From assembly GCA_903813345.2 (NCBI GenBank), contig CAIIXF020000008.1:7574366-7638365 (forward strand): DNA of 64,000 nt, read 5' to 3'. Source of the DNA: Owenia fusiformis (Eukaryota; Annelida; Polychaeta; Sabellida; Oweniidae). Below, in pieces: positions 10,320 through 53,800 of the stretch. Numbering within the stretch: position 1 is the first letter of the stretch; every line of letters starts with the position of its first letter. The translations under genes were made by a program, and so were the position numbers. Below the pieces are notes generated by a model. The model saw only the letters and a list, made by a program, of their open reading frames with translations. It did not search any database and had not been told where the DNA came from.

Positions 10320-13300
10320 ACAAGTGCGTGATACAGGGGTTGCCATTTTAGTAAAGGGTGTAAATACGTTTCTGTGCTTGATACAGGGTATATTTAATGG
10401 AAAAGGTTAAATTATGATGTTGAATTATTGGTGTCTATCATATATTTAAGAACTGCCATCTATATATGAATATAAAGTTTAAATAACTAACGTGAACAAA
10501 AGATTAATGAGATTCTGATTGTTTTGTTCTGAGAATGCTGCTGCCATCTTTGAATAAACTCTAAATTATCAATGATATAATTATAATCTATTGTGATAAC
10601 GAACACCTCCCAATCTGAATGTTTTTAACTGCACGGTGGCATTTGGATTAGACAGGTTTTACTGTATGAGTAATAGTAATACTGAAATTAAAAAAAATCT
10701 GAAGGCCTAGTCAATCTATTTTGGGAAATATTCTCAGCTATTTGAAATGAAGATCAACTTTGTAAGAAGTCTCTATAATTATTTTTTTAATTTATACAAT
10801 AACATTATACTCAACTTTAGTTCAAATTCCAATGCTCTGGCCTTGACTAATCAAAACAGTTCATTGCAATTGTTTCATCAATTATTATATTATTATATTA
10901 ATATATCATAATTATTTCACATGCAAATACTGTACTGCCACTAATATTTGATGCTGTTATCTTTCACAATTTTGAAATTTTGCGGATATCAATTTTCGCT
11001 AATTATAAATCTTTTATAATTTTATATCTATTTCTTTCACCATCATATCATTTCTCAAAAAAATTTCCAGCTTATTTGATTAAATGTTTTTAAAACCAAG
11101 AAATATGAATGAAACAGTACCTTCTTACCTTTAATTATTGCTATACCATGTACTTAAAGCCTTTACATGACACCTATCAGCTATCACCTGCTTCAAAAGC
11201 ATAGGTGATACTAAACTATTGAAATCAAGTGCTCACTTTAAATTTTTTTTATATTTTCTGTTTGGGAAAATCTGTTAGTTATCAGCTGCATTTTTGTCAG
11301 TCAAGATTTCTCTTCATCAAACCAAATCAAATCAAAGGAATGTTTAGTCAAATATCCAGTTGTTCAGGAATCGAACTCAATTCAAAGAATGATTAGTTCC
11401 ATAGTGTAAACATATACAACTTTGAACAATATTGGTATCAGCCATTATGTTACATTAAAAAAAACAGAATGTAAAACTGTAAAAGACTTTCATGTAAGCA
11501 GAAAATTTCTTGAAAGAATACTAAAGGTTTCGCAACAGAATTTAGACGGTCATATGTTGAATTGCAGAAATTTTCTGAAAATGTAAGGTGTGTATGTTAG
11601 GCCAATGCATTATCTAAAGGAAAAGTACTCATACAGATGATAAAAAAAATTGGAGATTGAGACAGGGAAGGTGCAAAGACCCCATCAACATTTTTTTTCA
11701 AAAATGTTTTCCTGATTTTCAGTTCCTTCCATTTTTTTTATAATGTTTTCACATTAATATGTTGCATTTGTAGACAAAGTTAACATACTAAAGAGAAAAT
11801 ATTTTCCTTTTAAGAGTTTATTTGTGTCTCCAAATGCAACATACTGATGCATAAAACATTTATAAAAATTGAGTAGAAGGGGAAATTATAAATTCAACGA
11901 ACATATAGGCCCACTGAGCATTTATTTTGCACAGGGCCTTTATTAGAAAGAACTCAAAATAAATGCCATTGGCTTTTATTAAGACTAAGAGGGAAATTGA
12001 AAACATTTTTCCAAGGGGACAGGCATTTATTAAGAGGGAAAATAGCTTTCCCAAGCCAGTGGGTGTTTATTTCGAGGCGTATTATCAATCGAAGAGTTGA
12101 CACATGGCCTTCATATACTCATGCAATAGTATCTATCATCTCTGATTGCACACTTCTGTTTTACCTTTCAAGCATTCGATTTGGATTTTGGAATGTCATA
12201 AAGCTATGCGGTCAAAAGTAATCTTAATACTTTTTAGTGAAAATGCATTTATATTTTTAAAATGCAGAATCTTGCGAATGCAAAATCCTCGAAATCCGAT
12301 CACCTCCACATCTGAATGTGTTTTTTCAACTGGTCATGGTGTTTTAACTGGTCATGGTGGCATTTGGATTAGACAGATATTACTGTATAAGTATTAGACA
12401 GATATTACTGTATAAGTATAATAGTATTACTGGAATTCCAAAAAATCATAACGCCTACAATGCTAGTAATATTAAGTGAAAATGCATTAATATTTTTTCA
12501 AAATCAAGAATCTTTCGGATGCAAAAACCTCGAAATCAGACGTTTAAATCTGAATGTTTTTAATTTGTAGCGGTGGCATTTGGATAAGACAGGTTTTACT
12601 GTATAAGTATAATAGACATTAATAGTATTACTGGAATTCCAAAAAATCATAAGGCCTATAGCAACAATCATGTGAACTTCAGGTCAAAATTCCAATGCTC
12701 CCTTGGCCAATCAAATCAGTTCATTGCATTTGTTTCATCAATGCTCTCAATATCATAATTATTCCACATGCAAATACTGTACTACCGGTTAATTTGCGAG
12801 TTTAAATTTCATGAATTTTGAGAAATACCAATTTTGCGGCCATTAAGTTTTGCGGATATCAAAGGTTTAACTTCCATTATTCTCTGAATCCTCAAAATTA
12901 ATTTATCTTATCTACAGTAATTACACCTACCCAATATCATATACTTTGGATAAGATTTAGGCTACAATCTCTAGATCTTAGTCAATGGCATGTTGCACCT
13001 CAGCCTTTAATTGGCGATATTCGCGACTATTAATTTTCGTGATTTTTACACAATCGTGAAAAGCACGAAACTAAATTGCACGCGAAAAATATCGGGAGTA
13101 CAGTACATTGAAACCATACACTCTTATATTCCATAAGAATTTGCAATCAAGCCTAACAAATCTATTGGCAAAATATTAGAAGGCCAGCAAATGTACACAT
13201 GCTAAAGTGATGAAACTTTAATGAATTTTAATTTTGCCTATACTGAGATGTGTTAAACTCTATTTGGGTTAGATTTATTCGGCTACACCCTCTACTTACA

Positions 13301-28439: not shown

Positions 28440-29870
28440 AAAAAGACGGGTATAATTTTTTGCAGATTTTTTGTGACAAAATTATTTCATACAACTACTC
28501 TTTACAAAGACATGGCTTTTTACAATGCAGGACACCTGAACTTATTTGTAAAGCTAGGAAATGGGCCAAAAGTGAATTTCCCGAGACAAAAATGGTGGCC
28601 ATTTTGAAATTAGGCGAGATTTTGAAGCAGGAGTCACAGGTTTTTTTTTTCTTTATTGATGTTGAACAAAATTATTTTAAATCGGGAATCCTATCTACAG
28701 AGGATTTAAAAAGTGTTGACAGAGGTTTAAAACTTGCCACTTTTTTGGACTGACTGAGAGACAGATGGACGAATCAATGTTAACTAAAATGGCTGAAAAT
28801 AAAAAAAAACTGATATAATATTTTGCCGATTTTTTGTAACAAAATTATTTCATACAACTACTCTTTACAGTGACATGGCTTTTTACAATGCAGGACAGCT
28901 GAAATTATTTGTAAAGCTAGGAAATGGGCCAAGAGTGAATTTCGCGAGACAAGAATGGTGACCATTTTGAAAATAGGCGAGCTTTTGAACCAAGAGTCAT
29001 AGGATAGTTTTTTGTATTGATGTTGAACAAAATTAACTTAAAACAGGAATCCTATCGACAGAGGGTTTAAGGCAAATGGTCCAAAAGTGGATTTTGCGAG
29101 ACAGATGGACAAATCAATGTTAACTAAAATGGCTGAAAATAAAAAAAATGGATATAATTTTTTGCTGATTTTTCGTAACAAAATTATTTCATACATCTAC
29201 TCTTTACATTGACATGGATTTTTACAATGTAGGACAATTGAAATTATTTGTAAAGCTAAGAAATAGGTCAAAAGTGAATTTCGCGAGACAAATATGGCGG
29301 CCATTTTGGAAATAGGCGAGCTTTTGAGCCAGGAGTCATAGGGGAGTTTTCTGAATTGATGTTGAACAGAAATAACTTAAAACAGGAATCCTATCGACAG
29401 AGGTTTTAAAACGTGCCACTGTTGTTGACGGAAAAGTGGATTTCACAAGTCAGATGGACAAATCAATGTTAACTAAAATGGCTGAAAATAAAAAAAATAG
29501 ATATAATTTTTCGCTGATTTTTTGTAACAAAATTATTTCATATATCTACTCTTTACATTGACACAGATTTTTACAATGTAGGACACCTGAAATTATTTGT
29601 AAAGCTAGGAAATGGGTCAAAAGTGAATTTCGCGAGACAAAAATGGCGGCCATTTTGAAAATAGGCGAGCTTTTGAACCAGGAGTCATAGGGGAGTTTTC
29701 TGTATTGATGTTGAACAGAAATAACTTAAAACAGGAATCCTATCGACAGAGGTTTTAAAACGTGCCACTATTGTTGACGGACAGACAGACGGACGGACGG
29801 ACAGACGGACAAGTGAGCGATTGCAAAAGCTCACCATGTGAGCTAACATGTGAGCTAAAAAGTGCAACAT
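28440..29870. repeat. Four-unit tandem array, about 340-365 bp per unit
   Basis: The marker CAAAATTATTTCATA recurs at 28477, 28840, 29179 and 29528, giving periods of 363, 339 and 349 bp. Each unit carries a GTTAACTAAAATGGCTGAAAA segment, a conserved TTTGTAAAGCTAGGAAATGG block and a GGCCATTTTGAAA block. The array ends in GACAGACAGACGGACGGACG and GCTCACCATGTGAGCT at 29777-29848, a tail typical of mollusc dispersed repeats and related to 45869-46756. The 112-codon + frame at 28415-28753 is repeat sequence. Confidence 0.85.
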
Positions 29871-32939: not shown

Positions 32940-33074
32940 TCAAAGAAGATTAGACAAATACAATATTGAATAGCAATAAACTCTGAAGGTTCATGTTTAT
33001 ATTTACATTTTTCAAAAAATACTCCCCCATCCATGTTATTTCCTGGTTCAAAATAAAGTATGAAGACACATATA

Positions 33075-34678
33075 CCCCAGCCTTTCAGTAGGTTCGCTTT
33101 AGGTGATATATTTAACTAGGATTTCTAGGTTCGCTTTAGGTAGTTCCCCATATACTCCATTGGTAGGTTCGCTTTAGGCGATGTTCAAATATGCTAATTA
33201 GGTCTAGGTTTACTTTAGGTGATCACCTAAAGCGAACCTATAACTACCTATAACTACCTAAACTACCTAAAGCGAACCTAGGTAGGTTCGCTTTAGGTAA
33301 TTATAGGTTTGCTCTAGGTAATTATAGGTTCACTTTAGGTGGTCACCTAAAGCGAACCTGAATCTAATTAGCATATTTGAACATCGCCTAAAGTGAACCT
33401 AAAACTACCTAAAGCGAACCTACGTAGGTTCGCATTAGGTAAATACTTCCAAGGGCTGGGTTGGCTTTAGACCACCCAGCAGCTGGATGACTTGATTTGT
33501 TGATTTGAACTGTTTATATATTTCTCACACATTTTGATGCATATATTCTCACGCAAGTACATTTATTTACAATGATGGTCCTAAGCTGGCCTATGGAGGT
33601 AGCCGGGTGTCTGGACCCTACAAACTTGTGAACTGTATAGGCTATATGTCAACTGTTTATTTATTTCTCACACATTTTGATGCTTAGTTTCTCACTCAGG
33701 TACATTTATTTAAAATTCCTCCTATTTTATAATTGCATGCTTTTATAACACTTAACCTCTTGAATACCAGCCTCTAAAAAGGGTTTGAAACCAGAGTATT
33801 GTTTATTTTTTGCCAGTTTTTTTGATATTTACATCTAAAAACACAACAGTTGATGTTTGATTTCATAAGAATAGTAAACATAGACCCATTCATTTTAAAA
33901 CATCATTTGTGAAGATTGGATAAAAATTGCCAAAGTTAGAACAGTTTTAGTGAAAAATTCTGTGACAGATATATCCGTCAATCTGGGTATTCAAGAGGTT
34001 AAAATAATATATTGATTGATCATTTGTACACTTACTTACATGTACTTTGTAAATGAGCACTGATGTGATGGTCATTTCAGCATATTTCCCCATTTTCCTG
34101 GCTATTTCCAAATTTCCTGTCTAACTGATTTTAGTTTGAATATTATACCCACAATGCATTGATACTTCCTGCTATCAGCGCCCCTAGTGGCTGTGACAGA
34201 ACTTCTGTTTTGTAGGTTTGCTTTAGGTAGCTTTAGGTAGCTTTGGGTTCGAACCTAAAACTACCTACAAGTTTGAAGTGTTTTAGGTAGATTTAAGATT
34301 TTTAGGTTCGCTTTAGGTAACTCTTGAAGAATGACTATGTTTTTTAGGTTCGCTTTGGGTTCGAACCTAAAACTACCCACAACTTTTCGATTTTTTAAGT
34401 GTTTTAGGTAGTTTTAGGTAACTCTAGATAATTTCTAAGATTTTTTGGTTCGGTTTAGGTAAATCCTGAAAAAGTATAACATTTTTAGGTTCGCCTTAGG
34501 TTCGAACCTAAAACTACCTACAAGTTTCTGATTTTTTTAAAGTGCTTTAGGTAGTTTTAGGTTCGAACCTAAAGCGAACCTACATGAAGTAGGTTCGTTT
34601 AGGTAGCCATCAAATTGTGGGATTCACTTTTAGGTTCGCTTTAGGTTCGAACCTACATCACCTACTGAAAGGCTGGGG
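33075..34678. mobile_element. 1.6-kb inverted-repeat element packed with GGTTCGCTTTAGG motifs
   Basis: The ends are CCCCAGCCTTTCAGTAGGT and ACCTACTGAAAGGCTGGGG, perfect inverted repeats. Left (33090-33440) and right (34210-34660) portions are crowded with the 13-mer GGTTCGCTTTAGG and its complement: about ten exact copies and a similar number of one-mismatch variants, often as back-to-back palindromes. The centre (33440-34200) is ordinary AT-rich sequence with an internal duplication (TTTCTCACACATTTTGATGC near 33523 and 33663). Unit A supplies the empty site near 31238. The flanks TATA/TACA allow a TA-containing target duplication. No transposase is encoded. Arrayed motifs of this kind usually bind a transposase, which is inference here. 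Confidence 0.85.
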
Positions 34679-34835
34679 TACATGTGCATCTCTTCAGTTT
34701 TTTTGTGGAAATCCTTGCTGTATTTAGGGCTAAGTAAATCAAAAATGAATTGTAGGTAATCCAATGTTGATGAGAAACTTGGAGAAGAGTTGGAAATCCA
34801 AATTCATGTAGGTGATATTTTAAATGATTTTTATC

Positions 34836-36901
34836 GATGAGACTCTTGATGAAAGCAGGAAAATATAGACAGGTCACTCATACTTTATTTTGAACCAGAA
34901 AACAGCCTTGGCAACCCTGAAACACTACAAGTGTTTATCATGCATTTACACATCATGGTAGAATGATTATTACACTTTTATGAAAATTTTTAATTTGAAC
35001 TCAATCTATCAGTTTTTGAGATATCGACAGAAAATCGAATGGAAATACCGTCCTTGAACTTGCTTTGATGACATTTCCCCAAGCTCGTAGTCCTTTTTGT
35101 GAAATGCATAACTACCTTAAGATATCAATAAGTAGGAGCTTACCTTCTAGATGAAAGTATTTTGTCTTTGTTAATAAATTGCTTGTGTATCAAAAGGCTT
35201 GACTACATCCATAAGGCATATTCTTGCTGATTACGATCTGATCTAATCTAGGAATCTTGCATCTATAAAAAAGATGAGTCAATAATAACAAACAGGTTGA
35301 ATTTGTGAGGATGACAAGAAGTTATCAAGAAGTTTTAGAGTTATTAACTTATCCTGCCATCATAATTTTCCAGAGTGGGTTTGGTACATCAATTACTAAG
35401 AGTAGTCAGAGTTACGTGTGTAGATATCAGAACAATCATATGAGTGTGCTGCACACAAAATCTAACAGGAATTCTCAGGTGGGGTTCCTTTTTTGATTAT
35501 GTTTGACGTACATTGATGTAACAAAGAACTCACAGATCACAATTTTAATTTGGGTATAGAACTGATGATTGATAAATAATATCTAAATAAAACGTTTAAT
35601 GATATTTCCTTCATAGCATTCATAATAAAGAAATTGGTGACTAAACAAGTAAATAAAGCATGGCACATAAAACATTTTTGGCTTGCTTTCCTTTAATTTC
35701 TCATCTCAATCAACTCTAAAATGTTCCATTTGGCTTCCTCAATGCTAACAGGATTCAACTATAAACTATTGATGTAACTTAAATATTTGGTAAGTGAACA
35801 CTCGACATAGTATCTCAGTACGTCTTTATGCCTTAGTCATGCTATGGAAGCCATTCAGTGTCATAGCCAATACCAATTCTACAGCTGGCACAGAATCTCT
35901 TGTATGCTGTGACATCTGGGAGGAAAATCTACAGCTGGGTGACAATAATCACCGAAGGGTGTCCCTTTGGTGATTGTAGCTAGGTTTTGACAAATATCAA
36001 GGCAGTCGCAGAAATGACAAATGCTACTACTACATGCTATAATTTCCATGGCAACCTTGCAGCCTGTTAGTTAAAACAAGTTAAACCTAGTCTCTGCGCC
36101 TTATTTCTTATCTGAGATATCTTGTGGCCCATAACATGGAGATACAGTATTAAATTGTAGTCCAATTTGGGCCAGCGGGGCCAGAGCACTTTATGTATCT
36201 GTGATGTTGCTCCTAAACAATGGGATCAAAGCAAGCATACTTACCTTATGAACACAACAATTTCATTTCACAGAAAAGTTTGACTACAGACAAAAATGGA
36301 CAATTCGAAAAATACATTTCAGAAATTGATCACATTTAACAATTATAAATGAATATTAACGCAAAATGTAATATGGAATTTTGCTAAGGGAGTGTTCAAT
36401 CAGTAGTCCCCGGATTTATTTACTGTACTTGTCTTTTTGTTCAGGTTAAAATGCCATCTATTAGACAGTAATATAAAACTAAAAGTGCTACTTTCATTCA
36501 CTGAGTGTGGCCATAGAATATATATATGACACTCTTAGTTGTTTTGGATTTGCCTTTAATGGTCCGGTTGGATTATTCTTATTGATGTAAACGTAATAAA
36601 CTCACTTTCATTGATCTTTACGGGATCAACCCAGTTGTCCGAAACCCAGTATATCAGAATGCTTTATCACTACACCCTTCTTGGTATTGTGAGATATCTG
36701 AATCAATTTCTCCTGTAACACTACCACACTCAGTTTCAATGACTTGACACATGATCAGTCATGTGACCTTGCAAAATGGACGATCTAAATTTCCAAAAAT
36801 TCTGCTAAGATCAAGACCGATATGCTGTTGCCTTCAGTGTCGTGTTTGGCGGAGTTCCACAATGTAACCTAGCAGGATGGATCACATGCTATCTACATGT
36901 A
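34836..36901. other. Unassigned non-coding DNA
   Basis: No supported gene, RNA or repeat; short frames such as 35305-35496 lack any feature. Confidence 0.4.
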
Positions 36902-37990
36902 TTGCAAGACTTACGCCTGCCACAACCATCGCCATGTTAATCAGTGTTTTTAAGTAGTGCAAGGATCCTGCCATGACCGTGGTAGTGTTATCGTGTAAGC
37001 CTGGTATAACCGTGACAGGCTGGTATAACCGTGATAATGCTGTATTATATTGCAAGGCCTGTCATGATCCTGGAAGTGTTATCGTGAAAGCCTGGCGCGA
37101 CCGTAGCCTTTAGGCTATTGTGGTTTATAAACGAATGTGGATATTAATGCAGGCCTGTCAACTGTCCCGCAATTTGCGTATTTGTCACGCATTTGCTGAA
37201 GAATTTGAAGTCACGCCAGTTATTGTTGCGTGACAGAAAATGTCACGCAATATACGCATTTTACCTGGTAATTGTCAAGCAAAAATATTTCAGTAGAAAA
37301 ATTTATAAAAAAGATCGTCTACACAGCAAAAATACGAACGACGGAAAAAAATGTACGCATTTCGTTCGGACTTTTCACGCGAATTACGTATATGTCACGC
37401 ATTCCGTTCGAAATTTTTCGTACCTAGATTCCCGTAGAAACGATAGGTTGGTTCATGATAGGTTAGGACCTAAGGCAGGGCAATTAATCGAGAGGAGATG
37501 GTCATGACCAATTTGTTTGCTTGCCATTCGTTGCAAGGTACAAAATCGGTAAAAAAAGTTGCCTAGTCCAACGATTGACATTCAAAATCAAATTATCAAT
37601 ATTCTAAGGCTACAAATATATTCGGTCTTTTACATGATATGGTCGGTCTTTTACACATTTTCTTCAAACCCTGTTTTGAGGCTACCAGTGGAAAACACCG
37701 ACCGGTCGGTGGTCGGTGGGGTCGGTCTTTTCCGAAAACCCCAGTATATTACATTGTCAAGGTCATGCCAGGCCTTGCAGTACTATATTACATTGTCACG
37801 GTCATGCCAAGCCTTGCAGAACTATATTACATTGTCACGGTCATGGCAGGCATTGCAATATAATACAGCATTGTCGCGGTTATACCAGGCTTTCACGATA
37901 ACATTACCACGGTCATGGCAGGATCCTTGCGCTAAATAACACTTGCACTGAATAACATGGTGACGGTTACGCCAGGCGTTAGTCTTGCAA
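36902..37990. mobile_element. 1.1-kb foldback whose arms are tandem arrays of an ACCGTGA motif
   Basis: TTGCAAGAC at 36902 pairs with GTCTTGCAA at 37982. The left arm (about 36902-37110) carries repeated GCCTGGTATAACCGTGA and CCTGCCATGACCGTGG units; the right arm (about 37745-37990) carries the complementary units at a period of roughly 40 bp. The interior (37110-37745) contains TGTCACGCA-type words and a GACCGGTCGGTGGTCGGTGG stretch. All open frames here, including the 126-codon one at 37559-37939, reflect repeat translation. Confidence 0.7.
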
Positions 37991-41800: not shown

Positions 41801-44800
41801 GATTCAAGAGCGTTGCACTGAACGAACCTTACTTCCTGCGAAAGCTATTTGGATTTTGATATGTCTATGTCAATAATCTGCAAAAGGCTAATAAGCCCAT
41901 ATAAAGCAGATATACAATTTAACAGTGATAGAATTTTAATAGAATATAATTTAAAACCTTAACATTTAAAAATAGATCTATGGTTTACAACTCATTTTAC
42001 CTGGGGAGACTGTCAGGCTACCGCGTTGACATCACCCCTCTTTACCAGTAGTGCAGGCTTGTTGCTGTGCACTGGGGACCCTTTACATTAAAACATAGAT
42101 CTATATTAAAAACACATCTATTTAATTGCAGTTATTGACATAGGCATAGTATGATGATTTAAAACTACTTAGACTGTCACAGTCTAAGATGTCACCAGGT
42201 AGAGTGTTCCATTTAGCTATTGTCCTAGGGAAATAGCTAAATTTGTATGCATCCGTTCTAGTTGATGGTTGTATGAACTTAGAAGGATGATACAACCTGG
42301 TGTTGGTATTGATCTGTTGGCGGAAGTATGGAGGCACATCGATGGCTGCTAGGTTCTGCTTTCCTTTGTAGAAAAGGAAAACTCTAGCAGCCTCTCGACG
42401 CTCCTTCAGTGGCTCCCACTGTAGGTCTTGAAGAGCTTTGGTGACGCAGCCTGGTTCCCTTGAGTGACATTTGGTTACAAACCTGGCTGCTCTTCTCTGA
42501 ACCTGTTCCAACATATCAATATCTTTTTGTCGGTATGGATCCCATGCCGAGCTGGCATACTCTAAATTAGGCCGGACTAGTGACTTATACGCCTGAGCCT
42601 TCACTTTTTCAGGGCATTGATGGAGGTTGCGCCTGAGAAATCCAAGCACCTTATTGGCTTTGGATACAATAGTTTGAATATGTGTAGTCCAGCGTAAGTT
42701 ATTTGTGATGTCAATTCCTAGGTATGGGATGTGTGTTACCGACTTAAGGTTTTCCCCTAGCATGGTGTAATTGTGCATGATAGGGGATTTACCTTTGTGA
42801 ATATTTAGCACATAGCATTTTGATGGATGGAATTTCATTTGCCATGTTGATGCCCAGGAGACCAGTTTATCAAGATTCTCCTGTAGTGTTAATGCATCTT
42901 GCTTGCTTTCGACTGTCATGAATAAAAGGCTGTCGTCGGCAAAAAGCTTAAGTCTTGATCGAAAAAGAAGTACTCCAGCGCTCCAATACTTACACGGATT
43001 GATGATACTGATGTAAGACACAGTTAGAGACCAAAAGTAAGCCGCGGATCGACTTAATTCAATTTCAAAGGTCACTATTGATCAGCTGTTCACTTCTCCG
43101 TTTGAGAGCCATAAGTTTCAAAATCTAACATGGCTCTCGAAGTGAGTAAAACGAACCTACAGTGCTGGTATATATTAATTGATCAGTCGTTTAATTGGCA
43201 TATTTTCTTGAATTTTAACATTTAATGTCCTAAACTCCCACAAACTGCAGAAAAGTATACCCCTTAAATCATATTTACCAAATTGAGTGTCTCCAAGGCT
43301 TCACACCAGCGTATGCATAATGCATTTGTCATGAGTTTGAGCTGAAATTTCGCCAAAATGAAGTAGGCTAAGGGTAGTCTCTGCCAGGTTTGTTTATTGT
43401 TGTAAGCTTGTAAGTGCTCAGAAGCAAATAATTCACGTGCGCAAAATAATTAAGTAATCTGATTGGTCTAAACTTTGCTGCACATGCGCACAATGTGTGC
43501 CATGTTTTTTTCTAGTGATTTCGTTTCGTTTCTTGGAGTTTGCATTTCAGTGTAACTTCCGCAAAAATGGCGTAAAATGGACAAAATTAACAGGTAAAAT
43601 CACTTCGAAATTTCAAGAGAACTTTTTACCTATAATAGCATTCTTGCATATTTGTGCATTCTATCTATCAGATAAGAGTTTCAGGGGTATGTAGGCAAAT
43701 TCATTTTGGTAGGAGCACTCTGTTAAGTTTGAAAACGCACCCTGTATTATTATATATCAGCACTTTATATGCCTATTTGTATCGGTTTAGTTGCTGGTTG
43801 GGAACCATGTTTATGACGTCACAAATGATGCGAAGAATCTTTAAACCAATCAGTGAAGTCTACATTAATTGTTTGTTTAGTTGTCAATGTGGCAATACGT
43901 GTCTGAAGTCACAGGTGATTGCATCATATTCCAGTCACGCCATTTTACGACATTGCATAATTTTAGCTGATTTTGGCTTCATTTCACTTTATTTGAAAGA
44001 CTTTTAAAAATATAATAATGAGTCAGTATTTTTTCTTATAAATATTAATATTTGAAATAGAGGTCAAAGTCCGAAAATTTGATCAACTGATTGAAATCAC
44101 ATTTTAAAGAGGTGAAGAAGTGAATAATTACAGGAGCAAACGTGATCAATGGTTCGAGGTCTCCCGCAAAGTAGTCGCTACGCTCCTACTTTGCGCTGCC
44201 TTCGGCAGAGGAGACCTCGAAAAAAGTAATCTACCTCAAGAGGTAGATTGAGATTTATCCTTAGATAATCCCAGGTTTGTACCAATTTACCGATTTTTGG
44301 ATTAATCCCACAATGCATCATTACCATGGCCGAAATTTATCTGGATTGGATTATGGATCGTCCGAATTTATCGACCAGGAGAGTGCAGACCACATGCATC
44401 AGAACAGAGATACTCCCACTCAGTTTATATGTATTAAAACTAAATAATATTATTTACTAGGTTCATAGACTGAGTGAAGGGATATATCTCTGTCCCGATG
44501 CTTGTGGTGCAGACTCTCATTTTACAACAAATTTGCAAAAGCCACTATTTTAAGAAAGCTGTGTAGCTCACTTCTTTTTCAAGATGAAATACCTCTTGGT
44601 TTTGGAATCTTCATGACTAGATCTACAGTAGATCTATCAGATACCTTTCCCTCAGAGGGTGTTTTTCAAATTTCATATAGGTAGAGCTGACATCGAATGT
44701 CAGAATGGTCAATTGTCAGTGGAATGCTTTCTGCGACACCCATGTCGACGCAATGCTTCCAGATCAACATTCGGAACTCACAAATAAGTTATTTCCCTAT

Positions 44801-47800: not shown

Positions 47801-50800
47801 ATAAAAGATATCATTGTCAGTTAATACAAGAAAACATGTTTCAATTTTCATGACTTTAAAACATTGAATTTATATTGAATCTACCCAACTGTGATATGCA
47901 GTATGTACAATATTGGTGAATTTGCGATACTTGTGAACATGGCATATTCAATCTACATTTCTAAGTTACTGGTGTCAGTGAATATCTGATATTCACTCGT
48001 GAATATGCGATAGGTGCGATCCCGAGTCCCAGAGCCGAATTCTAACTAAAACAAGTGAAATTAAATGATTGGAAAGGGTCTTTGAATGCTCCTTTTGCAA
48101 ATATTTGAACGAAATTGACAATTTGTACTAATGTATTGACTAAGGAAACATAAATTGAACAAAGTTGTAATATTATCATTGGCAGTTTATATTATTATTT
48201 ATTAACGGCATCATGACATAATGCTTATATATGTCTGATTGTCGGAAAGTTAAGAAAACTTTTTATTAATTTTTATGTTACTAGGGCATACTGAATATAT
48301 CAGCAATATTGTTTCGGATTTGACAATATGGGAGACCTAATATCATTACTTATTGTACACTCTGTATATTTATAAACCATTTAAGACTAAATGAAAGTAC
48401 AGTACATTATACTATATAATATCCATTCCCATTGTAAATTGGCCCATCAGTCATGCATTGAACACTGTTTGATATTGGACACCCTGTATATTTATAAACC
48501 ATTTAAGACTAAATGAAAGTACAGTACATTATATATTTATCCATTCCCATTGTAAATTGGCCCATCAGTCATGCATCGAACACTGTTTGACACTGGACAC
48601 CCTGTATATTTATTAACCATTAAGACTATTAAGTACAGTGCAATATGTTTAATTTCCATTCCCATTATAAATTGACCCTGCATTGAACACTGTTTGACAT
48701 TGATAAATAATTTAGTAATGCTACAAGTGCGTGATACAGGGGTTGCCATTTTAGTAAAGGGTGTAAATACGTTTCTGTGCTTGATACAGGGTATATTTAA
48801 TGGAAAAGGTTAAATTATGATGTTGAATTATTGGTGTCTATCATATATTTAAGAACTGCCATCTATATATGAATATAAAGTTTAAATAACTAACGTGAAC
48901 AAAAGATTAATGAATTCTGATTGTTAGGTTCTGAGAATGCTGCTGCCATCTTTGAATAAACTCTAAATTATCAATGATATAATTATAATCTATTGTGATT
49001 ACGAACACCTCCCAATCTGAATGTTTTTAACTGCACGGTGGCATTTGGATTAGACAGGTTTTACTATATGAGTAATAGTAATACTGAAATTCAAAAAAAT
49101 CTGAAGGCCTAGTCAATCTATTTTGGGAAATATTCTCAGCTATTTGAAATGAAGATCAACTTTGTAAGAAGTCTCTATAATTATTTTTTTAATTTATACA
49201 ATAACATTATACTCAACTTTAGTTCAAATTCCAATGCTCTGGCCTTGGCTAATCAAAACAGTTCATTGCAATTGTTTCATCAATTATTATATTATTATAT
49301 TAATATATCATAATTATTTCACATGCAAATACTGTACTGCCACTAATATTTGATGCTGTTATCTTTCACAATTTTGCAATTTTGAAATTTTGCGGATATC
49401 AATTTTCGCAAATTATAAATTTTTTATAATTTTGTATCTATTTCTTTCACCATCATATCATTTCTCAAAAAAATTTCCAACTTATTTGATTAAATGTTTT
49501 TAAAACCAAGAAATATGAATGAAACAGTACCTTCTTACCTTTAATTATTGCTATACCATTACATGACACCTATCAGCTATCACCTGCTTCAAAAGCATAG
49601 GTGAAACTAAACTATTGAAATCAAGTGCTCACTTTAAATTTTTTTTATATTTTCTGTTTGGGAAAATCTGTTAGTTATCAGCTGCATTTTTGTCAGTCAA
49701 GATTTCTCTTCATCAAACCAAATCAAATCCAAGGAATGTTTAGTCAAATATCCAGTTGTTCAGGAATCGAACTCAATTCAAAGAATGATTAGTTCCATAG
49801 TGTAAACATATACAACTTTGAACAATATTGGTATCAGCCATTATGTTACATTAAAAAAAAACAGAATGTAAAATACTTTCATGTAAGCAGGAAATTTCTT
49901 GAAAGAATACTAAAGGTTTCGCAACAGAATTTAGACGGTCATATGTTGAATTGCAGAAATTTTCTGAAAATGTAAGGTGTGTATGTTAGGCCAATGCATT
50001 ATCTAAAGGAAAAGTACTCATACAGATGATAAAAAAAATTGGAGATTGAGACAGGGAAGGTGCAAAGACCCCATCAACATTTTTTTTCAAAAATGTTTTC
50101 CTGATTTTCAGTTCCTTCCATTTTTTTTAATAATGTTTTCACATTAATATGTTGCATTTGTAGACAAAGTTAACATACTAAAGAGAAAATATTTTCCTTT
50201 TAAGAGTTTATTTGTGTCTCCAAATGCAACATACTGATGCATAAAACATTTATAAAAATTGAGTAGAAGGGGAAATTTTAAATTTTAAATTCAACGAACA
50301 TATAGGCCCACTGAGCATTTATTTTGCACAGGGCCTTTATTAGTAAGAACTCAAAATAAATGCCATTGGCTTTTATTAAGACTAAGAGGGAAATTGAAAA
50401 CATTTTCCCAAGGGGACAGGCATTTATTAAGAGGGAAAATAGCTTTCCCAAGCCAGTGGGTGTTTATTTCGAGGCGTATTATCAATCGAAGAGTTGACAC
50501 ATGGCCTATATATACTCATGCAATAGTATCTATCATCTCTGATTGCACACTTCTGTTTTACCTTTCAAGCATTCGATTTGGATTTTGGAATGTCATAAAG
50601 CTATGCGGTCAAAAGTAATCTTAATACTTTTTAGTGAAAATGCATTTATATTTTTAAAATGCAGAATCTTGCGAATGCAAAATCCTCGAAATCCGATCAC
50701 CTCCACATCAATGGTTTTTTTTTAACTGGTCATGGTGTTTTAACTGGTCATGGTGGCATTTGGATTAGACAGATATTACTGTATAAGTATTTGACAGATA

Positions 50801-53800
50801 TTACTGTATAAGTATAATAGTATTACTGGAATTCCAAAAAATCATAACGCCTACAATGCTAGTAATATAAAGTGAAAATGCATTAATATTTTTTCAAAAT
50901 CAAGAATCTTTCGGATGCAAAAACCTCGAAATCAGACGTTTAAATCTGAATGTTTTTAATTTGTAGCGGTGGCATTTGGATAAGACAGGTTTTACTGTAT
51001 AAGTATAATAGACATTAATAGTATTACTGGAATTCCAAAAAATCATAAGGCCTATAGCAACAATCATGTGAACTTCAGGTCAAAATTCCAATGCTCCCTT
51101 GGCCAATCAAATCAGTTCATTGCATTTGTTTCATCAATGCTCTCAATATCATAATTATTCCACATGCAAATACTGTACTACCGGTTAATTTGCGAGTTTA
51201 AATTTCATGAATTTTGAGAAATACCAATTTTGCGGCCATTAAATTTTGCGGATATCAAAGGTTTAACTTCCATTATTCTCTGAATCCTCAAAATTAATTT
51301 ATCTTATCTACAGTAATTACACCTACCCAATATCATATACTTTGGATAAGATTTACAATCTCTAGATCTTAGTCAATGGCATGTTGCACCTCAGCCTTTA
51401 ATTGGCGATATTCGCGACTATTAATTTTCGTGATTTTTAATCGCGAAAAGCACGAAACTCAATTGCACGCGAAAAATATCGGGAGTACAGTACATTGAAA
51501 CCATACACTCTTATATTTCATAAGAATTTGCAATCAAGCCTAACAAATCTATTGGCAAAATATTAGAAGGCCAGCAAATGTACACATGCTAAAGTGATGA
51601 AACTTTAATGAATTTTAATTTTGCCTATACTGAGATGTGTTAAACTCTATTTGGGTTAGATTTATTCGGCTACACCCTCTACTTACAGCCTTAACATGCC
51701 CCCTATCGGCTATCACCCGCTTCAAAATCATAACAGGTTCCTTTATATCTTCCTTTATCTTCTGTTTAAGAAATGCTGTTAGCTATCAGCTGTATTTTTG
51801 TCAATCAAGATTTCTCTTCATCTGTGAATTACCCAGCGAGAAACCAAAATGGCAATTTTGATGGAAAGACACAAAGTACCAGTCAAAATCTCTGAAGATT
51901 TCCGGGCAAACAATGGCAGCTCTCCCAGTTAGGTTTTAGACTGTCTTCTCATATTTTGTCAATTTTATTCAATTTCAAGTATTGTTTAGAGTTGTGCGTT
52001 CAACATATTCGAGAAGTCAATAGCTATAATAAATCTGCAGATTTTGCTCGCATTTATGTAAGCTTTTCTCTTTTGACGGATACTTTGTGTCTTTCCATGA
52101 AATCATGACAGGTGTAACTGATCTACTGAAATCAACTTCAAGTGCTTACTACTATCTCCCAACGTGAGCTACATCAGTGCTTTTTGTTGAGAAAATATGT
52201 AAGTTATTAGCCGCTTTTTTGCCGATCAGGATTTAAATTCTCTTTATCTGTCATGTACCTAGCAAGATTCAGAGATTTTGACTTGTACATCATGTCTTTC
52301 CGTCAAAACTTCTATTTTTGGTTTCTTGGTAAAGAGTAGCTTCTCAAGGTATAATGAGAATTTGCTGTTCGGCACAGAAGCGCCTTTTAATTTTTTTCGA
52401 TTTTCGCAAGGAGGACACTAACACAATTTTGAAGCGGTTGATAGGGGGCTCTAAAGGCTGTTCTAACATATCAGTCACAGCCTCTGAAAGAGCTAGATCT
52501 AAGGCTCTAGCTTTAGGCTAGTCTAAGTCCTATAGATCTAGTAGTCTAGGCCTAGAGTCATAGCCCAGGCATAGGCCCGTAAAAATGTTAAGAAATAAAG
52601 CTTACAGCATGTTCTATTTAAGTGAATTTGACTCATGTCAATGTTATACATGTTCCGGGCCTATGCCTAGTATAGTCCCGCAGGACGAAGAAGATAGAAT
52701 GTAAAAATCAAATTGAAAATCAAAATAGCATAGACTATCGAACGAAAAAAATTGAAAAAGTTGAAAATTCGATTTCGATTCAATTTGATTTTCTGCCATT
52801 ATAAATGAAATACTGTACTTACCAACATGTCTCTCGGATATATATGTTGTTCTTACTTTATCCTCGCCGAAGATCGATGTTTATTTATATATAACAATCG
52901 AATAATCGACATAATTCAAACTCATCACTACGACACAAAAATATATCACTTTCGAAACCATGTAAACTGCTAAGATGACGTCATTTATATCCGGGATTGC
53001 TTTGCAAACTCCACACAACAGACTGTCCCAGCTTTTCTCCTGCTTTCTCCCGATGCAATTCATACATTACTCGGAGATTACTGTCAAACGTTCCAAGTTT
53101 TACAATTTTAGCATGTTTATTACGATCTAATTCCTGCCAGTATCTAATAGGGAGTTTGCTTAATAGGGAGTCCTCTATCTAATAATTGTGGTATGCTGCA
53201 ATGATATAATATTGTTGATATTAGGCAGAAATAGAACTAGAGGCCAGTGATTAAAATAGATGGCATCGGGGCATCAGGTTTAGCTTACATTTGTTTTATG
53301 TTCACCCTATTCCCATTATATACACTCTTTGTCTCCAAGTAGTACATAGAATGGAGGAGGGAGGGGGGGGGGGCTCACCAGACTAAGGAGATATGCTAAC
53401 AAGTAAAATCTGCTCCTTCCCACATGAACTGGGCAATTTAGATAATAAACTGGCATTTGGGCCCAAATTTTTTTCATGCAAGCGTGGAAATTGTCAGAAC
53501 CCCTCTTCTCTGGGTTTCCAGGATCGTCCCTGGCATCTTGTTAGAAATAAATATGTGGTGCACAATAATTACAATTATGTCAGAGAAAGTTGTCCATATT
53601 TGGACGACAATCTCTGATTCGCTCGGTGAGTTCAGAGATTTATTGAAAACTGAAAGAGTGAAGACGAAGCATTCCCCAGAGAAGCAAAGTCGAATGAATG
53701 CAAGGGTAGATGGAAAGTGCAGCAAGTCATGTATTGGTAATTATATCAATTTAAGAAGTGAAAACAATCCTTAGTAAATGGTCCCTATAAGTCAACAAAT

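What the first reader, a model, noticed from the sequence alone, without database searches (positions are those of the whole stretch)
33075..34678. Transposon-like element built from a 13-bp motif in both orientations
Perfect 19-bp inverted ends enclose two zones filled with GGTTCGCTTTAGG and its complement, about ten exact copies plus a similar number of one-base variants. Many are paired as palindromes (e.g. ...CTTTAGGTGATCACCTAAAG... near 33220), and a longer stem (GGCGATGTTCAAATATGC and its complement) spans 33175-33380. Nothing else in the window carries the motif. The density far exceeds usual subterminal transposase sites. It could be a binding array for a transposase or host protein, a strong hairpin transcript, or an element that grows by motif amplification. 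The family is not recognised.
Basis: partly seen in the sequence, partly recalled or inferred. Interest (0 to 1): 0.75.

Follow-up and report, generated by a model that had tools for sequence, protein, structure and literature searches.

The report
Non-autonomous CACTA transposon with binding-site arrays
The feature is a recently active, gene-less cut-and-paste transposon of the animal CACTA (EnSpm) kind, whose two ends are packed with a short repeated DNA sequence that most likely docks the protein that moves it; a known kind of element, in a family whose mover was not found here.

Summary
Window 33076-34677 is one of 26 copies in this 498-Mb genome with both 18-nt ends exact and facing inward. 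Ends read CCC...GGG. A 2-bp duplication of variable sequence flanks 21 of 26 copies (1.9 expected). Of 20 joined flanks searched, two match empty sites perfectly over 98 bp and a third at 95%. CCC ends plus a 2-bp duplication are the marks of animal 'TRC' CACTA/EnSpm transposons (PMC1636069); the Hydra element Spongebob also starts CCCAGCC (PMC4298943).

The element has no gene, so it is non-autonomous. The genome does hold CACTA transposases, nine of them identical over 581 residues, but no transposase match lies within 31 kb of the 75 family ends compared. The mover is unknown.

The basic repeat is the half-site TAGGT: 53 in 1.6 kb; 25 of 51 same-strand neighbours lie 10 or 11 bp apart, with differing spacers. 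In the right zone half-sites outlast spacers between subfamilies; in the left zone not significantly. Some array size changes are 10-bp steps. The great left hairpin is much weaker in a sister subfamily. Best reading: a docking array for a TNPA-like protein, by analogy with maize. New family, known kind.

The parts
33076..34677 (.). Complete non-autonomous transposon copy, 1602 bp, CCCAGCC...GGCTGGG
   Evidence: Boundaries from other copies and from empty sites of three other copies
33076..33093 (+). Left terminal inverted repeat CCCAGCCTTTCAGTAGGT
34660..34677 (-). Right terminal inverted repeat (same sequence on - strand)
33073..33075 (.). Left flank TAC: this copy has AC/GT next to CCC...GGG, or TA/TA if its ends are counted as CCCC...GGGG
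34678..34680 (.). Right flank GTA (see left flank)
33089..33440 (.). Left subterminal array of TAGGT half-sites (26 sites) in both orientations
34213..34664 (.). Right subterminal array of TAGGT half-sites (27 sites) in both orientations
33116..33440 (.). Long imperfect palindrome inside the left array (longest arms 33164-33250 / 33315-33401); RNA fold of 33076-33445 -208 kcal/mol, z -20
   Evidence: the outer limits are read by eye from the fold
34391..34533 (.). 143-bp array unit absent from the 7 copies of the shorter subfamily
34220..34229 (.). 10-bp array step absent in 7 of 20 other copies aligned
33752..34002 (.). Older TTAA-flanked miniature transposon nested in the interior; no copy of the 21 aligned lacks it, and its core matches at 13 listed places outside the family
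33503..33716 (+). Internal 71-nt direct repeat pair (33503-33573, 33646-33716), 87% alike

Best explanation
A non-autonomous cut-and-paste transposon of the animal TRC branch of CACTA/EnSpm. Shown: ends CCC...GGG in an 18-bp inverted repeat, 2-bp target duplication without a fixed sequence, empty sites, dispersed near-identical copies, no long reading frame inside, and subterminal arrays of about 350 and 450 bp of TAGGT half-sites, about half of whose same-strand neighbours lie 10-11 bp apart. Inferred: a transposase supplied in trans by another element cuts at the CCC/GGG ends, and a DNA-binding protein of the TNPA type docks on the half-site arrays and helps bring the two ends together. The arrays change size by blocks, some of them a whole helical turn.
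For: 26 intact pairs of ends. 2-bp direct repeat in 21 of 26 copies against 1.88 expected from mispaired ends, 0 of 26 at 3 bp, ten different dinucleotides. Empty sites for 3 of 20 joined flanks, two of them at 100% over 98 bp, one at 95% with gaps. Mean divergence 0.7% among the 14 copies of the long subfamily. Animal TRC elements: CCC at TIR start, 2-bp direct repeat in 7 of 14 SmTRC1 copies, Aedes TIR CCCAGTCAAC (abstract and passages of PMC1636069); Hydra Spongebob TIR CCCAGCCAACATTGAC with 2-bp TSD, called a TRC element (passages of PMC4298943). Same genome: nine loci with one identical Transposase_21 protein; in two of them the element was read end to end, 14.46 kb in the one measured, with CCCC...GGGG ends; a 2-bp repeat next to CCCC/GGGG in 3 of 6 copies readable at both ends, 1 of 6 if CCC/GGG is taken (read by eye); own words enriched near its ends. 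Half-sites: 53 in the element against 1.5 per kb in the rest of the window; 25 of 51 same-strand neighbours 10 or 11 bp apart, with different spacers. Right zone against L025, L026, L052: half-sites 94-97% kept, spacers 69-72%, 0 of 279 mask shifts as good in each.
Against: No autonomous copy with these ends was found; no transposase match lies within 31 kb of the 75 family ends compared. 5 of 26 copies, this one included, lack the 2-bp repeat at CCC/GGG. Half-site conservation is not significant in the left zone against L025, L026, L027 (23, 81 and 69 of 169 shifts as good). With L025 as reference it is weak or absent: 19 of 264 (L026), 45 of 264 (L052), 33 of 243 (L029), 112 of 229 (L028, half-sites 69% against spacers 71%), left zone 62 of 204 (L026) and 9 of 201 (L027). 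L025, L026 and L052 are one subfamily, so not independent; the mask was defined on one sequence, and repeats may bias the alignment. Protein binding was not tested.
Confidence: 0.82

Rival explanations
1. The arrays matter as nucleic-acid structure: the transcribed left zone folds into a hairpin with a stem of over 100 bp, feeding small RNAs or forming a cruciform used in transposition.
For: Left zone RNA fold -208 kcal/mol, z -20.3, 0 of 100 shuffles as good; spacers as well as motifs pair. Right zone z -8.5, 0 of 100. The sister subfamily also folds beyond shuffles (0 of 100, 0 of 100 and 0 of 200).
Against: The sister subfamily shares the ends and half-sites, but its left-zone folds are far weaker (z -3.5 in L026, -5.2 in L025), and the 13-mer hardly occurs in reverse there (0 in L026, 1 in L025 at up to 2 mismatches). 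The palindrome looks like an inverted duplication in one lineage. No small-RNA data were available.
Confidence: 0.1
2. Another DNA-transposon superfamily with a 2-bp duplication (ISL2EU, Tc1/mariner, Mirage) is the mover.
For: No partner was found, so the transposase is not proven.
Against: ISL2EU duplicates AT (passages of PMC4482050) and Tc1/mariner in general TA (passages of PMC10045372); here ten different dinucleotides occur. CCCAGCC ends match TRC elements. That Mirage duplicates TA is recalled, not checked.
Confidence: 0.06
3. The family is moved by one of the resident CACTA families despite different ends (cross-mobilisation), for example the one with nine loci.
For: Its nine loci encode an identical 581-residue protein; two copies compared are 99.99% alike over 8234 aligned bases; end style is similar, CCCC...GGGG.
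Against: Its end zones carry other words (AAGAATA, ATTATTC); no 13-mer with up to 2 mismatches and no dense TAGGT occurs in the pieces fetched from CACTA loci, L037-L046. Of L039-L042 only 9-kb pieces, not both ends, were seen.
Confidence: 0.12

Closest known systems
TRC branch of CACTA/EnSpm in animals (SmTRC1; PMC1636069, abstract and passages seen)
   Same: CCC at the start of the inverted repeat; 2-bp target duplication; Transposase_21 elements with C-run ends are present in this genome
   Different: No transposase in this family; TIR sequence beyond the first bases is its own; the term 'subterminal' does not occur in that paper's main text, so arrays could not be compared
Spongebob / EnSpm-4N1_HM of Hydra (PMC4298943, passages seen)
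   Same: TIR begins CCCAGCC, 2-bp duplication, assigned to TRC CACTA
   Different: TIR differs after 7 bp (CCCAGCCAACATTGAC against CCCAGCCTTTCAGTAGGT); subterminal content not compared
Plant En/Spm with TNPA-bound subterminal repeats (PMC2613891 and PMC8195511, passages seen)
   Same: 10-20-bp subterminal motifs in direct and inverted orientation; non-autonomous copies moved by proteins given in trans
   Different: Plant ends read CACTA, with a 3-bp duplication in the soybean element described; the end sequence here is different; no TNPA-like protein identified here

Membership tests
Animal TRC-type CACTA/EnSpm | Inverted repeats that start with CCC | tested here: met
   CCC...GGG, directly inside the 2-bp duplication. 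The 26 copies were picked by an exact end pattern, so uniformity is by selection; the independent support is that whole-element matches stop there and the empty sites
Animal TRC-type CACTA/EnSpm | 2-bp target duplication of variable sequence | tested here: met
   21 of 26 against 1.88 expected; empty sites for 3 of 20 joined flanks
Animal TRC-type CACTA/EnSpm | Transposase_21 (PF02992) transposase in an element with the same ends | tested here: inconclusive
   14 PF02992 matches in the genome; none of 47 transposase places is within 31 kb of 75 family ends; a non-autonomous family need not carry it, and the assembly may lack the partner
CACTA/EnSpm in general | Subterminal motif arrays in direct and inverted orientation | tested here: met
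Plant CACTA (En/Spm) proper | Ends begin CACTA; 3-bp duplication | tested here: not met
   ends CCCAGCC; 0 of 26 with a 3-bp duplication
ISL2EU | AT target duplication within AATT | tested here: not met
   AT in 4 of the 21 copies with a 2-bp repeat
Tc1/mariner | TA target duplication | tested here: not met
   TA in 3 of 21
CACTA/EnSpm in general | Accessory protein binds the subterminal motif | not testable with these tools
   needs a binding assay

The most novel reading that the evidence does not exclude
The arrays are helically phased platforms: TAGGT half-sites are placed one turn apart with varied spacers, and non-autonomous copies gain or lose whole turns (10 bp) and larger blocks, competing with one another and with the lost or unseen autonomous partner for a limiting DNA-binding protein. 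Array size would then be a selected trait of the parasite.
Probability: 0.2. Interest if true: 0.5.

Novelty: new member of a known kind. Interest (0 to 1): 0.3.

Why it matters
It gives a well-bounded, recently active CACTA family of the animal type with a readable subterminal code: half-sites often one helical turn apart, kept in one zone while spacers change. The accessory-protein binding that I found described for CACTA elements is from plants. Here subfamilies with different array sizes in one genome allow a direct test of whether array length governs mobility. If the partner is really gone, it is also a case of a family that outlived its mover.

Tried and rejected
Autonomous copy among long elements: the 12-kb pair on C12 (377500-389506) is an ordinary copy split by inserted DNA, including a frame that looks like reverse transcriptase by eye; L021 and L022 are copies with inserts of about 2.0 and 1.2 kb. 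The 7 unpaired ends (L027-L033) showed no second end within the 8-kb pieces at up to 3 mismatches of 13, except one 3-mismatch hit in L033 that I judged chance; I read them as broken copies, but partners further away or more changed are not excluded. End-like hits at C3:10214901 and C7:462516 lie in two 99%-alike stretches that look like coding sequence of a retroelement by eye and hold no motif; judged chance.

Diverged family ends: (53 and 74 matches) added ten fragments, none near a transposase. Of the 13 mismatched end hits I left out 8 that I judged chance (C3:10214901, C7:462516, C7:10776218, C8:5386390, C10:614431, C10:614524, C12:249918, C12:6034695); L051, one of these, showed no motif.

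ISL2EU was considered first for its 2-bp duplication and rejected because it duplicates AT. An empty site for the window copy itself was sought with its right flank: 15 matches, only partial ones besides itself. Three of the five copies without a 2-bp repeat (window, L001, L005) have reverse-complement dinucleotides (AC/GT, TC/GA, CC/GG); with n=3 this is left unexplained.

Longer-range phasing of half-sites (counts at 21, 31, 41-42 and 51-52 bp) was not tested against a null and follows in part from repeated units, so nothing is claimed. Paper searches (listings; the 13-mer itself: 0 papers) showed me no description of this family; Repbase cannot be searched here, so the family may be recorded there.

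Full report
What is there. The window lies on contig C8 of an unnamed 498-Mb assembly of 525 contigs. I take it to be an animal by the look of genes and repeats in fetched pieces; this was not tested and the species was not determined. The element spans 33076-34677 (1602 bp). It starts CCCAGCCTTTCAGTAGGT and ends with the complement. The 13-mer GGTTCGCTTTAGG has 11 exact and 7 one-mismatch sites, all inside, with none in 100 shuffles.

Family. A search with the element gave 141 matches, 40 of 818 first-look candidates being scored. The 18-nt end occurs 59 times exactly, read as 26 inward pairs and 7 lone ends. I fetched the 25 pairs outside the window. The window copy and L001-L013 form a long subfamily (mean divergence 0.7%, range 0.3-1.3%); L014-L020 form a short one (0.97%); between them 1.58%. 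L021, L022 and the C12 copy carry inserts. L025 and L026 are an older branch: the main aligned end pieces are 77-82% like the window copy, and no interior match was found. L052 belongs with them, with one changed end base. The 13-mer occurs 269 times in the genome against 0 for the reversed control.

Boundaries and duplication. Next to CCC...GGG a 2-bp direct repeat is found in 21 of 26 copies; 1.88 are expected when ends of different copies are paired; 0 of 26 has 3 bp. The dinucleotides are AT 4, AA 4, TA 3, TT 2, GT 2, TC 2 and GG, TG, AG, CT once each. Exceptions are the window copy, L001, L005, L011 and L022. The window copy has AC/GT, or TA/TA if its ends are counted as CCCC...GGGG. One search with the joined flanks of 20 copies, one duplication removed, found empty sites: L006 at 38 places of a common repeat (100% over its 98 bp at 37 of them, 99% at one); L010 once at 100% over 98 bp; L009 once at 95% across the junction, with gaps. 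Only 40 of 4922 candidates were scored, so the other 17 are untested, not negative.

Classification. No stop-to-stop frame of 120 codons or more lies in the element. Animal CACTA elements of the TRC branch have CCC at the TIR start and a 2-bp duplication (abstract and passages of PMC1636069). Hydra Spongebob, called a TRC element, has the TIR CCCAGCCAACATTGAC and a 2-bp duplication (passages of PMC4298943); its first seven bases equal those here. ISL2EU duplicates AT and Tc1/mariner in general TA (passages), which does not fit. I therefore file the family as non-autonomous TRC-type CACTA by its ends and duplication, not by a transposase.

CACTA transposases in the same genome. PF02992 gives 14 matches, nine of them in loci with the same open 608-codon frame; the protein is identical over 581 residues in all nine. 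Two of these copies were read across both ends; the one measured is 14.46 kb with CCCCGGCG...CGCCGGGG ends. Six of the nine could be read at both ends (L037, L038 and four); one or both ends were missed at the expected place in the other three. Three of the six show a 2-bp repeat next to CCCC...GGGG (AA, CG, TC), or one of six if the end is taken as CCC...GGG; this was read by eye. Words AAGAATA and ATTATTC occur 8 and 8 times in the first 500 bp, 10 and 7 times in the last 500 bp, and 0.11 and 0.16 times per 500 bp in the middle (the words were picked by eye). Pfam confirms Transposase_21. No 13-mer with up to 2 mismatches is in L037-L046, which hold two full copies of this family and 9-kb pieces of four other loci. 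With two protein searches I compared 47 transposase places with 75 family ends: the closest pair is 31.9 kb apart, and that transposase lies in a copy of the nine-locus family with its own ends. The mover of this family was not found.

The arrays. The basic unit is TAGGT: 34 forward and 19 reverse in the element, against 1.5 per kb in the rest of the window. Of 51 neighbouring same-strand distances, 14 are 11 bp and 11 are 10 bp, with spacers TCGCTT (8), AGTTT (5), AATTA (2), AGTTA (2) and others. In L025 it is 12 of 31 and in L026 10 of 31. Opposed half-sites within 15 bp make TAGGTNNNNACCTA palindromes in all five cases. In the right zone half-sites are kept at 97%, 97% and 94% against L025, L026 and L052, spacers at 72%, 69% and 70%, and no shift of the mask does as well (0 of 279 each); the whole 13-mer is kept at 85%, 87% and 78%, so the half-site is the better unit there. 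Against L028 and L029 the gain is smaller (74% against 58%, 76% against 63%; 5 of 229 and 7 of 231 shifts as good). In the left zone it is not significant (23, 81 and 69 of 169 shifts), although the 13-mers themselves are at 94%, 96% and 89% against spacers of 73%, 77% and 76%. With L025 as reference most comparisons are not significant (19 of 264, 45 of 264, 33 of 243, 112 of 229, 62 of 204, 9 of 201). The case for constraint therefore rests mainly on the right zone and on one subfamily contrast.

Array change. Among 20 other copies aligned to the window copy, block differences of 6 bp or more in the arrays are: 10 bp missing at 34220-34229 (7 copies), 10 bp missing at 33244-33253 (4 copies), 42 bp missing (1), 8 bp and 143 bp missing (the same 7), and 100 bp added (1). 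In the middle they are 8 bp added, 11 bp missing and 8 bp added. So some array changes are a whole helical turn.

Hairpin. The left zone folds to -208 kcal/mol, z -20; the right zone z -8.5. The older branch gives z -3.5 (L026) and -5.2 (L025) on the left and -6.3 (L026) on the right; no shuffle folded as well in any of the five. Some excess folding thus goes with the motif in two orientations, while the great hairpin is a trait of one lineage.

Mechanism. In maize En/Spm, TNPA binds the subterminal repeats, TNPD is the putative transposase, and both can act in trans on defective copies (passages of PMC2613891; PMC8195511). By analogy the TAGGT pairs dock an accessory protein that helps join the ends, and a CACTA transposase cuts at CCC/GGG. 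Ends, duplication, copies and right-zone conservation are shown; protein docking, the identity of the mover and present activity are inferred.

Verdict. Real, well bounded and recently active, but a new family (as far as the searches named here show) of a known kind. Its value lies in the legible half-site code and the missing partner.

Noticed in passing
33752-34002: A TTAA-flanked miniature element with CCTCTTGAATACC inverted ends is nested in the transposon; its core matches at 13 listed places outside the family (where only 40 of 818 candidates were scored).
   Followed up: partly
33043-33063 and 34878-34898: A perfect 21-nt inverted repeat (CTGGTTCAAAATAAAGTATGA) brackets the insertion site, so the transposon may have landed in another small element; a search with the right flank gave only partial matches elsewhere.
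   Followed up: partly
12324-12419 and 50720-50815: The same pair of short tandem repeats (18-bp and 25-bp units) occurs twice, 38 kb apart, suggesting two copies of another mobile element.
   Followed up: no
28759-29781: Three tandem copies of a 349-bp unit, 90% matches.
   Followed up: no
36992-37034: A 19-bp tandem repeat unit (CGTGAAAGGCTGGTATAAC, 2.3 copies) shares GAAAGGCTGG with the transposon end; perhaps chance.
   Followed up: no
42122-43081 (-): Open frame of 319 codons with a reverse-transcriptase match below the Pfam cut-off.
   Followed up: no
L045/L043/L037 (C1:24231595-24246051): A 14.46-kb CACTA element; nine loci encode its identical protein, and two copies compared are over 99.9% alike, with tandem repeats near the left side.
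   Followed up: partly
L031:479-636: Behind a lone family end lies a palindromic stretch (TAGGAGCTTTGAAAATTTGAATTC and complement), perhaps another miniature element.
   Followed up: no
window 33074-33075 / 34678-34679; flanks of L001 and L005: Three of the five copies without a 2-bp direct repeat have reverse-complement dinucleotides at the two ends (AC/GT, TC/GA, CC/GG).
   Followed up: no
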